From assembly GCA_947459155.1 (NCBI GenBank), contig CANHCM010000003.1, forward strand, positions 1 to 37,575: a stretch of 37,575 nucleotides of DNA, written 5' to 3'. Numbering within the stretch: position 1 is the stretch's first letter; each line of letters starts with the position of its first letter. Positions 1-24,334 of the stretch are shown piece after piece. The notes under the pieces were generated by a model, which saw only the letters and a list, made by a program, of their open reading frames with translations, was not told where the DNA came from and did not search any database. The stretch comes from Bacteroidota bacterium (GTDB lineage: Bacteria > Bacteroidota > Bacteroidia > M30B66). Made by a program: the position numbers and the translations under genes.

Positions 1-1302
1 GGTCAAATGTCCTTTCTGCATGTAAGCCGGCAAGCCGAGATGATTCCAGGTGGCGCTTTTTTGCATGGCTTTGAGCGCCAATGTAGAATCGAAATCGCGG
101 ATGCCCTTAAACCACGAATCGGCAATTACCGAAACGCTGTGGTAGCCAATCATGCAATCGGTTTCGTTGGCTGCAAGTTCCCACACGGGCAATCGGCCGC
201 CTTGCTCGTACATCAGCAAAAAGGTCTTGATGAAATCGGCTTGTCGTTTCGGGTATAAAATGGCATACAACGGGTGCGCAGCGCGGAAGGTGTCCCAAAG
301 CGAAAATACGGAGTACACATTATGTTCGGCATAGTGAATTCGATTGTCCATGCCACGGTACTTGCCATCGTTGTCGCTCACCACATTGGGCTGCAACAGG
401 GTGTGATACAAGGCCGTGTAAAACACGCGCTTTTGCGCTTCCGTTCCGCCCTCCACCTGAATTCGGCCAAGGGCGTCGACCCAAAAATTCTTTGCCGTGT
501 TTTTGACTGCTTCGAAACTTCGGTAGTCATTTTCGGCTTCTAGGTTTTGATAGGCACCATCCATCGAGGTGAAGGAGATGCCTACACGCACTTCGAGTTT
601 TCGGTCGATGAGTTTATCGAAATTGAGCAATACGTAATCTTTGGTAAGCACTGCACCATTCGCTTGGCCTTGTGGCACAAAGGGTTCGCTAAATTCCATG
701 GCAAAGTACACGTGTTGTTCTTTCGCCCAGGCGTTGCTGATGCGGTAACCGCGGATTACCCGGTCGCTGATCCATTCAACACCGCTTCGGATGGTTTGGT
801 CGCGGTGACGAAGATCGAGCACCACGGCACCTTTGTTTTCGGCGAAAGTGTAGCGGTGAAAACCCACTTTGGGCAAGGCTGTGAGTTCGGCCTTCACGCG
901 GTGTTTGTCGAGAAACACCTCATACCAGCCGGCCCCGGCCTTTTCGCGGGAATGAGAAAATTTCGAGGCATAATCGCTTCGCTTTTCGGAGGCTTTTCCA
1001 AAAGGCATCGGCATGAGGAGAATGTCGCCATAGTCGGAAACGCCGGTTCCGCTGAGGTGGGTGTGCGAAAACCCATAAATCACCGAATCGCTGTAATGAT
1101 AGCCGCTGCAGCCGTCCCATGAGCCATCGATGCGCGTGTCGGGGCTCAGTTGTACCATTCCGAAAGGCACCGTAGCGCCCGGAAAAGTATGTCCATGTCC
1201 ACCGGTACCCACAAACGGATTCACATAGGCCGTAAAGTCGGGTTGAGCATGGGCCACTATGGAAATGGCAGCCAGAAAGAGGAGTGCAGCAAAGCGAATC
1301 AT
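1..1302 (-). CDS. GH92 family alpha-mannosidase, secreted (3' end cut by window edge)
   Basis: A 434-codon frame is open from an ATG at 1302 to the left edge, so only the N-terminal part is visible. It begins with a signal peptide (MIRFAALLFLAAISIVAHAQ), so the enzyme is exported. The segment around residues 23-50 reads YVNPFVGTGGHGHTFPGATV followed by PFGMVQLSPD, and then come SGYHYSDS and GFSHTHLSGTG. These are hallmark N-terminal motifs of glycoside hydrolase family 92, calcium-dependent exo-alpha-mannosidases. Near the cut end, NETDCMIGYHSV matches the family block that carries the catalytic acid glutamate. GH92 enzymes usually exceed 700 residues, so about 40% is missing. Known members trim alpha-mannose from N-glycans or yeast mannan; the linkage used here cannot be told. 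It is transcribed away from porW. A poor -7-like box (TACTTTCG, 1314-1307) lies 4 nt before the ATG. Confidence 0.93.
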   Translation of the reverse strand, partial: MIRFAALLFLAAISIVAHAQPDFTAYVNPFVGTGGHGHTFPGATVPFGMVQLSPDTRIDGSWDGCSGYHYSDSVIYGFSHTHLSGTGVSDYGDILLMPMPFGKASEKRSDYASKFSHSREKAGAGWYEVFLDKHRVKAELTALPKVGFHRYTFAENKGAVVLDLRHRDQTIRSGVEWISDRVIRGYRISNAWAKEQHVYFAMEFSEPFVPQGQANGAVLTKDYVLLNFDKLIDRKLEVRVGISFTSMDGAYQNLEAENDYRSFEAVKNTAKNFWVDALGRIQVEGGTEAQKRVFYTALYHTLLQPNVVSDNDGKYRGMDNRIHYAEHNVYSVFSLWDTFRAAHPLYAILYPKRQADFIKTFLLMYEQGGRLPVWELAANETDCMIGYHSVSVIADSWFKGIRDFDSTLALKAMQKSATWNHLGLPAYMQKGHLT

Positions 1303-1350
1303 GCTTCGAAAGTACAGCAGATTTTCGCTTTTTAAGCTGGGGCGGCTGAA

Positions 1351-1437
1351 CCGGGCTTTACGCTGCTACTCCTCGCCCCGCCCTTTGGCTGCGCTCAGGG
1401 CGCCGGGCTGCGGGGTATTCGCTGCAATCCCTGCCGC
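1351..1437. repeat. Composite intergenic repeat element, copy 1
   Basis: This GC-rich stretch has two related half-units in direct orientation. The first (1352-1375) starts CGGGCTTT and ends TCCTCG. The second (1411-1432) starts CGGGG and ends CAATCCCT. Between them is self-complementary DNA: CGCCCT (1379-1384) can pair with AGGGCG (1397-1402), or CCCCGC (1376-1381) with GCGGGG (1410-1415). The same order of half-unit, hairpin, half-unit recurs at 24251-24334. It lies in the 234-bp gap between the divergent GH92 and porW genes, upstream of the porW -7 box, and I see no credible coding potential in the gap. Confidence 0.6.
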
Positions 1438-1506
1438 CATTTCGTTCGCCCGGGGCTTGGTGTACAACTCATTTCGACTTGAAGAAAAAAATTCCGAAAA
1501 ACGCAC

Positions 1507-22566: not shown

Positions 22567-24222
22567 ATGAAAATTGCCCTCGCCCAGATCAATTGCCTGA
22601 TCGGCGATTTTGAAGGCAATACCGCACAAATCCTTTCTGCCATTCGCCGCGCCGAAAGCGATGGAGCAAACCTCGTGGTCTTCCCCGAACTCGCCGTTTG
22701 TGGTTACCCACCCCTCGATTTTCTCGAATTCAACGATTTTATCACCCGCTGCCAGGAGGCCATCAATACCATTGCCCAAGCCTGTACAAGCGTTGCTGCC
22801 ATCGTTGGGGCCCCATCCGTCAACCCAAACATCGAGGGAAAAAACCTCTTTAACTCCGCATTTTTCCTTCAGAATGGGAAAATTGCCCAGGTAGTCCACA
22901 AAACACTGCTGCCCAATTACGACGTGTTCGACGAGTACCGGTACTTTGAACCCAACACCCAGTTCAAATGCATCTCGTTTATGGGTAAGAAAATCGCCCT
23001 CACCATTTGTGAAGACCTTTGGGACGTCGACGAAGACAAAATGTACGTTCGTTGGCCAATGGACGAACTCATCAAGGAAGCGCCACAGCTGATGATCAAC
23101 ATCGCGGCCTCACCGTTCAACTATCGCCACGCCGAAAGCCGCAAGCGCATCCTTCATCAAACCTGCCTCAAATATGCGCTCCCGGTTTTCTACGTGAACC
23201 ACGCCGGAGCGCAAACAGAACTCATCTTCGACGGAGGCTCGCTCGTGATGAACAAAGAAGGCAACGTAGTGAGCGAAATGGCTTATTTCCGCCCCGACTA
23301 TCTGCTATACGACCTCGACTGGGTAAAAACCGCACGCAGCGTGCCTTTCGGCGCCGAGCTTAACCTCTCGCACCCCGACATTGAAATCGAACGCATCTAT
23401 CAGGCGTTACTGCTTGGCATCCGCGACTATTTCCGCAAGCTGGGCTTCTCCAAAGCTATTCTGGGTCTCAGTGGTGGCATCGACTCGGCAGTGGTTTACG
23501 CCCTCGCCATCGAAGCCCTCGGCCCCGAAAACGTACTCGGCGTAATGATGCCCTCGGCCTACTCTTCCGACCATTCGCTCAGCGACTCCATAGAGCTGGC
23601 CAGAAACCTCAACGGAAAAACCGAGAAAATCCCTATCGAATCGGCATTCTCCGCCTTCGAATCAAGCCTCAGTACGCAGTTTGCCGGCAAAAGCCCCGAC
23701 CTCACCGAAGAAAACCTTCAGGCCCGAATTCGCGGCGTTCTCCTCATGGCCATGAGCAATAAATTCGGCTACATTCTGCTCAACACCTCCAATAAAAGCG
23801 AAGCCGCCGTTGGCTACGGCACCCTCTACGGCGACATGTGCGGAGGGCTTTCCGTCATTGGCGACCTTTACAAAACACAGGTTTACGCGCTCGCCCGTTA
23901 CATCAACCGCGACCGCGAAATCATCCCGAAAAACATCCTCACCAAAGCGCCAAGCGCCGAGCTCCGCCCCGGACAAAAAGACTCCGACTCCTTGCCCGAG
24001 TACGATCAGCTCGACCCCATTCTCTATCAATACATCGAACTTCGAAAAGGCCCACGCGAACTTATCGCCGCCGGTCATTCCGAGGCCCTTGTCAATCGCA
24101 TCCTAAAACTCGTCAACACCAACGAGTACAAGCGTTACCAAACGCCTCCCGTATTGCGGGTTTCTCCAAAAGCCTTTGGCTCCGGTCGCCGCATGCCCAT
24201 CGTTGGGCGCTATTTGAGCTGA
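22567..24222 (+). CDS. nadE: Glutamine-dependent NAD+ synthetase
   Basis: A 551-residue cytoplasmic enzyme for the last step of NAD synthesis: deamido-NAD + ATP + glutamine give NAD. The N-terminal nitrilase-type glutaminase (1-255) has its triad at Glu41 (VVFPELAVCGYPPLDF), Lys112 (HKTLLPNYDVFDEYRYF) and Cys148 (LTICEDLWDVD). The C-terminal synthetase has the PP-loop LSGGIDSA (301-308), with NTSNKSEAAVGYGTLYGDMC and KAPSAELRPGQKDSDSLPEY. Length matches the two-domain bacterial form, so it can use glutamine directly. In F. johnsoniae, as I recall, nadE lies beside gldB-gldC; here a barrel gene sits between them and the pair is divergent. Confidence 0.96.
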   Translation: MKIALAQINCLIGDFEGNTAQILSAIRRAESDGANLVVFPELAVCGYPPLDFLEFNDFITRCQEAINTIAQACTSVAAIVGAPSVNPNIEGKNLFNSAFFLQNGKIAQVVHKTLLPNYDVFDEYRYFEPNTQFKCISFMGKKIALTICEDLWDVDEDKMYVRWPMDELIKEAPQLMINIAASPFNYRHAESRKRILHQTCLKYALPVFYVNHAGAQTELIFDGGSLVMNKEGNVVSEMAYFRPDYLLYDLDWVKTARSVPFGAELNLSHPDIEIERIYQALLLGIRDYFRKLGFSKAILGLSGGIDSAVVYALAIEALGPENVLGVMMPSAYSSDHSLSDSIELARNLNGKTEKIPIESAFSAFESSLSTQFAGKSPDLTEENLQARIRGVLLMAMSNKFGYILLNTSNKSEAAVGYGTLYGDMCGGLSVIGDLYKTQVYALARYINRDREIIPKNILTKAPSAELRPGQKDSDSLPEYDQLDPILYQYIELRKGPRELIAAGHSEALVNRILKLVNTNEYKRYQTPPVLRVSPKAFGSGRRMPIVGRYLS

Positions 24223-24250
24223 GTCTTTTTTTGGGGCTTTGCCTACGGCA

Positions 24251-24334
24251 CCGGGCTTTCCATTACAAGTCCTCGTAGCGGACGGCAAAAAAGCCGCCTC
24301 TACTGCGGGCTTTTCATTTCAATCCCTAAGCCGC
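24251..24334. repeat. Composite intergenic repeat element, copy 2
   Basis: The element sits in the 118-bp gap between the converging nadE and TonB-receptor genes. Half-unit one (24252-24273) starts CGGGCTTT and ends AAGTCCT; half-unit two (24306-24327) starts CGGGCTTT and ends CAATCCCT. They agree at about 18 of 22 positions. A hairpin lies between them: GTAG (24275-24278), GG and CGGC pair with GCCG, CC and CTAC (24300-24303) across a six-A loop. Order and spacing match the element at 1351-1437. The hairpin could also serve as a bidirectional terminator, although no clean T-tract follows it. Confidence 0.6.

What the first reader, a model, noticed from the sequence alone, without database searches (positions are those of the whole stretch)
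1351..1437. Composite repeat element with paired half-units, in a divergent gap and again in a convergent gap
Direct comparison shows two elements of about 85 bp (here and at 24251-24334) with the same plan: a half-unit starting CGGGCTTT and ending TCCT, then self-complementary DNA that differs between copies, then a second half-unit ending CAATCCCT. One lies between divergent gene starts and the other between convergent gene ends, so neither a promoter nor a terminator role explains both. Conserved arms with a changing but still base-paired middle suggest a spreading intergenic element or a structured RNA. I recall similar sequences in other Bacteroidota genomes, but not a described function.
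Basis: partly seen in the sequence, partly recalled or inferred. Interest (0 to 1): 0.62.

Follow-up and report, generated by a model that had tools for sequence, protein, structure and literature searches.

The report
Repeated DNA hairpin with swapped tips
This is one of more than 50 copies of a short folded DNA repeat, a distant relative of an annotated but unexplained 'RNA' motif (Flavo-1), whose stem stays at the same chromosomal sites in related species while its tip is replaced by unrelated hairpins, which suggests it works as folded DNA rather than as an RNA.

Summary
Both window copies (1341-1438 and 24235-24332) belong to a family with 54 strong copies in this draft genome and about 109 in its closest relative. 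The two half-units pair with each other on the minus strand, through short Watson-Crick helices joined by G.A mismatches and two GNA/GNA internal loops. Pairing in these helices is 99-100% and covaries strongly. Rfam shows a sub-threshold match to Flavo-1 (RF01705), which Rfam types as an sRNA. Bona fide Flavo-1 copies in Flavobacterium have the same architecture.

Three results point to DNA rather than RNA: G.U pairs are almost absent (under 0.5% against 6.9% in tRNAs from the same genomes), a strand-specific d(GCGNAGC) mini-hairpin often caps the tip, and copies lie in every gene arrangement.

At 23 orthologous sites compared with the relative, all are occupied in the same orientation. The arms are 94% identical, against 63-69% for adjacent noncoding DNA. 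In 13 of the 23 the central hairpin has been replaced by an unrelated module, and which module dominates differs by genome. I read it as an old, vertically inherited hairpin platform whose cap is replaced by copying between dispersed copies. A link to Y1 transposases is suggestive but unproven.

The parts
1341..1438 (-). Element copy 1 with outer foot (GGCGGC 1341-1346 pairs with GCCGCC 1433-1438)
   Evidence: sequence; model R1 hit 1346-1438 minus, 78.8 bits, E 2.4e-13
1352..1373 (+). Half-unit A of copy 1 (3' arm of the folded minus strand)
   Evidence: pairs with half-unit B
1374..1409 (.). Variable cap of copy 1 (contains CCTGAGCGCAGCCAAAGG-type hairpin on the minus strand); the orthologue in relative G004 has a different cap
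1410..1432 (+). Half-unit B of copy 1 (5' arm of the folded minus strand)
24235..24332 (-). Element copy 2 with outer foot (GGCTT 24235-24239 pairs with AAGCC 24328-24332) and small side hairpin TGCC/GGCA 24240-24250
   Evidence: sequence; R1 hit 24246-24333 minus, 73.9 bits, E 2.8e-12; Flavo-1 sub-threshold hit 24252-24326 minus, E 5e-4
24252..24273 (+). Half-unit A of copy 2
24274..24305 (.). Variable cap of copy 2, type II (GTAG-GGCGGC..GCCG-CTAC hairpin on the minus strand); type I (GCGNAGC) at the orthologous site in G004
24306..24327 (+). Half-unit B of copy 2
1..1302 (-). Flanking gene of copy 1: glycosyl hydrolase family 92
   Evidence: Pfam PF17678/PF07971
1537..4203 (+). Flanking gene of copy 1: TPR-repeat protein
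   Evidence: Pfam
22567..24222 (+). Flanking gene of copy 2: NAD synthase
   Evidence: Pfam PF02540/PF00795
24341..26851 (-). Flanking gene of copy 2: TonB-dependent receptor
   Evidence: Pfam PF00593/PF07715

Best explanation
The element is a dispersed, vertically inherited intergenic DNA hairpin, a divergent branch of the Flavo-1 motif. When the minus strand is single-stranded (for example behind a replication fork or after cruciform extrusion), half-unit B folds back on half-unit A. They form a stem of short Watson-Crick helices separated by an A.G/G.A mismatch and two GNA/GNA loops, topped by a separate cap hairpin. Shown: this fold, its strand, its covariation, the fixed sites and the in-place replacement of caps by other modules. 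Inferred: (a) the active form is DNA rather than RNA; (b) caps are replaced by ectopic copying between copies (gene conversion or template switching primed in the shared arms), because replaced caps belong to genome-wide module families and the change sometimes reaches the inner 3' arm; (c) the conserved stem is kept because a protein recognises it, in the manner of REP/BIME elements. The protein and its purpose are not identified.
For: Fold and strand: helices 1-3 pair in about 98-100% of cells, with 10-15 of 16 pairs covarying and no shuffle of 500 reaching the observed covariation score. The single mismatch is G.A in 98 copies and A.G in 49 of about 149, a coordinated swap that is T.C/C.T on the other strand. 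DNA-parameter folding favours this strand in 151 of 158 copies. GCGNAGC occurs in 51 of 162 caps and its complement in 4. DNA rather than RNA: about 5 G.U among ~1,280 cells in G004 and 1 among ~620 in the own genome, against 21 of 306 pairs in tRNAs from the same genomes; in Flavobacterium and Pedobacter Flavo-1 it is 1 of 260. d(GCGAAGC) is a known extraordinarily stable DNA mini-hairpin (Hirao 1994, cited in PMC6582339). In F. [quoted passage not shown] Fixed sites with swapped caps: 23 of 23 orthologous sites occupied in the same orientation; arms 94% identical (random copies 76%), caps 57% (random 43%), 13 of 23 below 0.60; adjacent noncoding DNA 63-69%. Type II caps 20 of 52 here against 2 of 109 in G004, P about 1e-9.
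Against: No RNA or protein data exist for this organism. Low G.U could also come from inherited subfamilies, since counts are of copies and not of independent events. GNA loops and G.A pairs also form in RNA. G004 stretches were fetched around its own elements, so the 23 of 23 figure under-samples empty sites. Cap exchange was seen clearly in only one species pair; four Flavobacterium orthologue pairs kept the same kind of cap. No recognising protein or phenotype is known.
Confidence: 0.58

Rival explanations
1. It is a structured non-coding RNA (the current Rfam view of Flavo-1: sRNA), transcribed from the minus strand, with G.A internal loops as a protein- or ligand-binding core.
For: Strong covariation; Rfam curates the related motif as RNA; Weinberg et al. 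2010 judged Flavo-1 'probably' an RNA (PMC2864571).
Against: Almost no G.U pairs; copies in convergent, tandem and divergent gaps with no promoter logic, and in tandem gaps the structured strand is antisense to the genes more often than sense (46 to 24); F. psychrophilum transcriptome shows no consistent transcription (PMC9723704); more than 50 to 100 copies per genome.
Confidence: 0.2
2. It is a REP-like non-autonomous mobile element moved as single-stranded DNA by a Y1 HUH transposase (the Y---Q--HH subclass 1.2 proteins), analogous to REP/RAYT systems.
For: Elements lie 180-300 bp from Y1 genes in six genomes, antisense when upstream and sense when downstream; in G022 the only detected element is next to its only Y1 gene; about 0.5 such cases expected by a rough count, P about 2e-4 to 2e-2 depending on gap-size bias. 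In G004 the structured strand tends to be the G-rich strand (72 of 109).
Against: The window genome, G004 (100% complete, about 109 copies), G005, G017 and G023 have many elements and no detectable Y1 gene; of 80 Y1 loci from other genomes only one, already counted, has an adjacent element; seven Flavobacterium/Pedobacter Y1 loci have no adjacent Flavo-1; sites are stable between species. Two of the six cases are orthologous. GC skew is weak and flips within contigs.
Confidence: 0.17
3. It is a bidirectional transcription terminator or mRNA 3'-end stabiliser.
For: Over-represented between convergent genes (12 of 44 and 32 of 87 against about 20% of gaps) and under-represented between divergent genes.
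Against: No T-run follows the hairpin on either strand in most copies (1 and 14 of 161); copies occur between divergent genes, including window copy 1; in tandem gaps the sense RNA would more often carry the weaker, pyrimidine-mismatch version.
Confidence: 0.05

Closest known systems
Flavo-1 RNA motif (Rfam RF01705; Weinberg et al. 2010)
   Same: Same strand, same order of helices, A/G mismatch and two 3x3 internal loops; found in Bacteroidota; 50-122 copies per genome in the Flavobacterium-type genomes and the Pedobacter searched; variable terminal hairpin; almost no G.U pairs.
   Different: Copies here score 19-32 bits, below the 42-bit gathering score; GC-rich arms instead of the AAUC/GAUU core, longer and more varied caps, and caps exchanged between species, which was not seen in four Flavobacterium orthologue pairs.
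REP / REPIN / BIME elements with RAYT (TnpA-REP) transposases
   Same: Short intergenic palindromic repeats in high copy, mostly at 3' ends and between convergent genes; type II caps carry GTAG at the foot of a GC-rich hairpin; some lie beside Y1 genes.
   Different: The arms carry no GTAG guide, the cores are direct repeats that pair through G.A mismatches, sites are stable, and the window genome has no Y1 gene.
REP dimers nested in larger palindromes (Anabaena variabilis GTAG-15, H. neapolitanus CGTC-1; PMC3733652)
   Same: A REP-like hairpin sits inside another palindrome.
   Different: No exchange of the inner hairpin at orthologous sites is described in that section, and the outer palindromes differ in sequence.
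Integron attC sites (from general knowledge, not tested)
   Same: Folded single strand with mismatches that mark the strand and a variable terminal structure.
   Different: No integrase boxes, cassettes or arrays were seen here.

Membership tests
Flavo-1 (RF01705) | Score at or above Rfam gathering cut-off (42 bits) | tested here: not met
   Best own-genome score 31.8 bits, E 8.4e-5
Flavo-1 (RF01705) | Consensus secondary structure with two GNA/GNA internal loops around 2-bp helices | tested here: met
   Alignments; pair counts; parsed Flavobacterium copies
Flavo-1 (RF01705) | Found mainly in Bacteroidota | tested here: met
   28 of 60 genomes (this one and relatives) carry R1 elements; 8 of 9 genomes searched with the Rfam model carry Flavo-1
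Flavo-1 (RF01705) | Acts as an RNA | not testable with these tools
   No expression data; near absence of G.U pairs argues against
REP/RAYT (REPtron) | GTAG/GTGG guide 5' of the hairpin foot | tested here: not met
   Not part of the conserved arms; GTAG only inside type II caps, 14 strict cases in the own genome
REP/RAYT (REPtron) | Cognate Y1 transposase gene in the genome | tested here: not met
   No PF01797 match in the window genome (86.6% complete) or in G004 (100% complete)
REP/RAYT (REPtron) | Transposase gene flanked by the repeat | tested here: inconclusive
   Six cases in relatives, one of 80 elsewhere
Intrinsic terminator | GC-rich hairpin followed by a T-run | tested here: not met
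   1 of 161 and 14 of 161 on the two strands
MITE of a DDE transposon | Target-site duplication and precise empty sites | tested here: inconclusive
   Gap B is empty in G002, G005, G007, but the junctions do not align precisely

The most novel reading that the evidence does not exclude
Flavo-1 and its relatives are not RNAs but a phylum-wide class of folded-DNA platforms: a fixed, selected stem of sheared G.A pairs at conserved chromosomal sites, whose hairpin cap is a replaceable cassette homogenised genome-wide by ectopic copying, so that each species re-caps the same sites with its own hairpin.
Probability: 0.42. Interest if true: 0.78.

Novelty: new variant of a known kind. Interest (0 to 1): 0.6.

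Why it matters
Flavo-1 is a high-copy Rfam motif, typed as an sRNA, with no assigned function; only three papers in the searched library name it. If it is a DNA element, many annotations are wrong and a common kind of Bacteroidota repeat lacks its binding protein. In-place exchange of unrelated hairpin caps between species, with the stem conserved, is a mode of repeat evolution I did not find described in the papers searched, and it can be tested directly with strain collections and with single-stranded DNA binding assays.

Tried and rejected
Rfam at gathering threshold: no match; only a permissive search showed Flavo-1. Attaching the element to TnpA-REP subclass 2.6 (PMC6006769): the nearby Y1 proteins carry the subclass 1.2 signature instead, and the further Y1/RAYT-type loci fetched from element-bearing genomes gave only one weak distant element hit. 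A general Y1 association across 80 loci: rejected. Intrinsic terminator: rejected. Plasmid spread: no match. Virus spread: 5 hits in 2.9 million contigs, so essentially chromosomal. GC-skew strand bias: significant in G004 but the skew flips within contigs, so not used as evidence for replication strand. Three region requests failed on a length limit and were repeated.

Full report
OBSERVATION. The two elements are at the stated places. The half-unit consensus CGGGCTTT...TCCT occurs once without mismatch in each, and in this 2.81 Mb, 320-contig draft genome (86.6% complete; the window is contig C3) many further copies share the plan. Copy 1 lies between divergent ORFs (a GH92 glycosyl hydrolase and a TPR protein) and copy 2 between convergent ORFs (NAD synthase and a TonB-dependent receptor). 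Reading outward, each has a paired foot: GGCGGC/GCCGCC in copy 1 and GGCTT/AAGCC in copy 2. Across copies an exact foot complement is present in 28 of 161 against 2 with altered bases.

STRUCTURE. A permissive Rfam search places Flavo-1 (RF01705) on the minus strand of copy 2 (24252-24326, 26.5 bits, E 5e-4) and on other copies (22-32 bits, gathering score 42). On that strand half B and half A pair: helix 1 (GCG/CGC type), one A.G or G.A mismatch, two further pairs, a GNA/GNA loop, two pairs, a second GNA/GNA loop, three pairs (AAG/CTT or TAC/GTA), a C.A mismatch, CC/GG, then the cap. On 17 copies helices 1-3 are 100% paired and 10 of 16 pairs of the whole structure change on both sides; slid controls fall to 31-43% paired. 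On 53 own and 109 G004 copies the result holds (97.4% and 94.8% of all cells paired, covariation score 0.50 and 0.46 against 0.13-0.14 in shuffles); those alignments are fitted to the model and lean towards it. The mismatch swaps G.A and A.G together (98 and 49 copies; only 2 others).

DNA OR RNA. In helices 1-3 I count 5 G.U pairs among about 1,280 cells in G004 and 1 among about 620 in the own genome, while double changes number about 184 and 85. tRNAs from the same loci have 21 G.U among 306 pairs, and 26 Flavo-1 copies from Flavobacterium-type genomes and Pedobacter have 1 in 260. These are copies, not independent events, so the contrast is indicative. Caps on this strand contain GCGNAGC in 51 of 162 copies and its complement in 4; d(GCGAAGC) is an extraordinarily stable DNA mini-hairpin (Hirao et al. 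1994, quoted in PMC6582339; PMC10527192). Flavo-1 hits in the F. psychrophilum transcriptome showed no consistent relation to transcripts (PMC9723704). The authors of PMC3733652 took frequent G-T pairing as a sign that many GTAG REPs are transcribed and act as RNA; by the same logic its absence here points to DNA.

COPY NUMBER AND RANGE. Model R1 finds 54 copies at E < 1e-5 here, 105 in G004 by whole-genome search and 109 in the fetched G004 stretches. Of 60 genomes searched (this one and 59 relatives), 28 have at least one, and G045 and G050 also reach the scoring cap. Virus and plasmid collections are almost empty. Flavobacterium-type genomes carry 50-101 Flavo-1 copies at E <= 0.001 and Pedobacter cryotolerans 122.

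SITES AND CAPS. For own elements whose two flanks both align to a G004 stretch (about 74-94% nucleotide identity, mostly about 85%), all 23 sites are occupied in the same orientation; the reverse comparison gives 23 of 23 after two hits that duplicate the window are recognised. Arms are 94% identical, noncoding DNA just outside 63-69%, and random pairs of copies 76%. Caps average 57% (random 43%), and in 13 of 23 pairs fall below 0.60. They fall into modules: I, about 30 nt with GCGNAGC; II, GTAGGGGCGGC...GCCGCCCTAC; III, AACAGAG-purine-rich loop-CTCTGTT and relatives. Type II is 20 of 52 here and 2 of 109 in G004 by manual reading (P about 1e-9), whereas type III and relatives dominate G004. 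Window copy 2 carries type II; the same site in G004 carries type I between near-identical arms. In several swapped pairs the inner loop of the 3' arm changes as well (for example L324, L327 and L022), which suits copying tracts that end inside the arms better than precise excision; this step is inferred. Four Flavobacterium-type orthologue pairs also share sites, with caps of the same kind that differ mainly by compensated pairs or not at all.

EMPTY SITES. At the NAD synthase gap the element is present in the own genome, G004 and G006, present as a shortened relative in G001 and G003, and absent in G002, G005 and G007, where the converging genes nearly touch. At the first gap it is present in own and G004 only, but the left neighbour differs elsewhere. 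Gain or loss therefore occurs on genus-level time.

TRANSPOSASE. Y1_Tnp (PF01797) is absent from this genome and from G004, G005, G017 and G023, which all carry several to many elements. In six relatives an element lies 180-300 bp from a Y1 gene, antisense upstream or sense downstream; two of the six are orthologous. A rough expectation is 0.5. The proteins carry the Y---Q--HH signature of subclass 1.2 or a close variant, a subclass that Quentin et al. 2018 describe as generally lacking IS200-like end structures (PMC6006769). An independent set of 80 Y1 loci gave only one, already counted, case. I keep this as a rival.

CONTEXT. By crude ORF calls copies are intergenic, enriched between convergent genes and depleted between divergent ones; in tandem gaps the folded strand is antisense 46 to 24. 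T-runs do not follow the hairpin, so it is not an intrinsic terminator.

CONCLUSION. The best-supported reading is a selected, vertically inherited folded-DNA element of the Flavo-1 kind with an exchangeable cap. Fold, strand, sites and cap replacement are shown; DNA as the active form, ectopic copying as the route and protein recognition as the reason for conservation are inferred. It fails the Rfam cut-off, so I do not file it as Flavo-1 but as a divergent variant.

Noticed in passing
window 1374-1409; also L388, L406, L361 (G004) and L433, L441 (Pedobacter): The hairpin CCTGAGCGNAGYCGAAGG (or a close variant) serves as cap in several lineages; it looks like a widely dispersed short palindrome in its own right.
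   Followed up: no
L134, L138, L139, L147, L148, L155: Y1 transposases of the Y---Q--HH signature (subclass 1.2) with an R1 element 180-300 bp away in inverted orientation; this subclass was reported to lack associated structures generally.
   Followed up: partly
L206:19569-19980: Two elements in inverted orientation about 250 bp apart, a REPIN/BIME-like doublet.
   Followed up: no
L318:1412-4169 (G014:C86): Two elements in the same orientation 2.7 kb apart, the only two detected in that genome.
   Followed up: no
L291 and L292, gap after NAD synthase: Shortened relative of the element lacking the GNA core but keeping the foot and CGGGCTTT/TCAATCCCT ends, a possible decay form.
   Followed up: no
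G004 stretches of up to 20 kb (L339-L413): The folded strand coincides with the locally G-rich strand in 72 of 109 copies, more so where skew is stronger; cause unclear because skew flips within contigs.
   Followed up: partly
L168 and L174 (Flavobacterium denitrificans contig NZ_AUDL01000004.1): Two subclass 1.2-like Y1 genes about 16 kb apart in opposite orientation.
   Followed up: no
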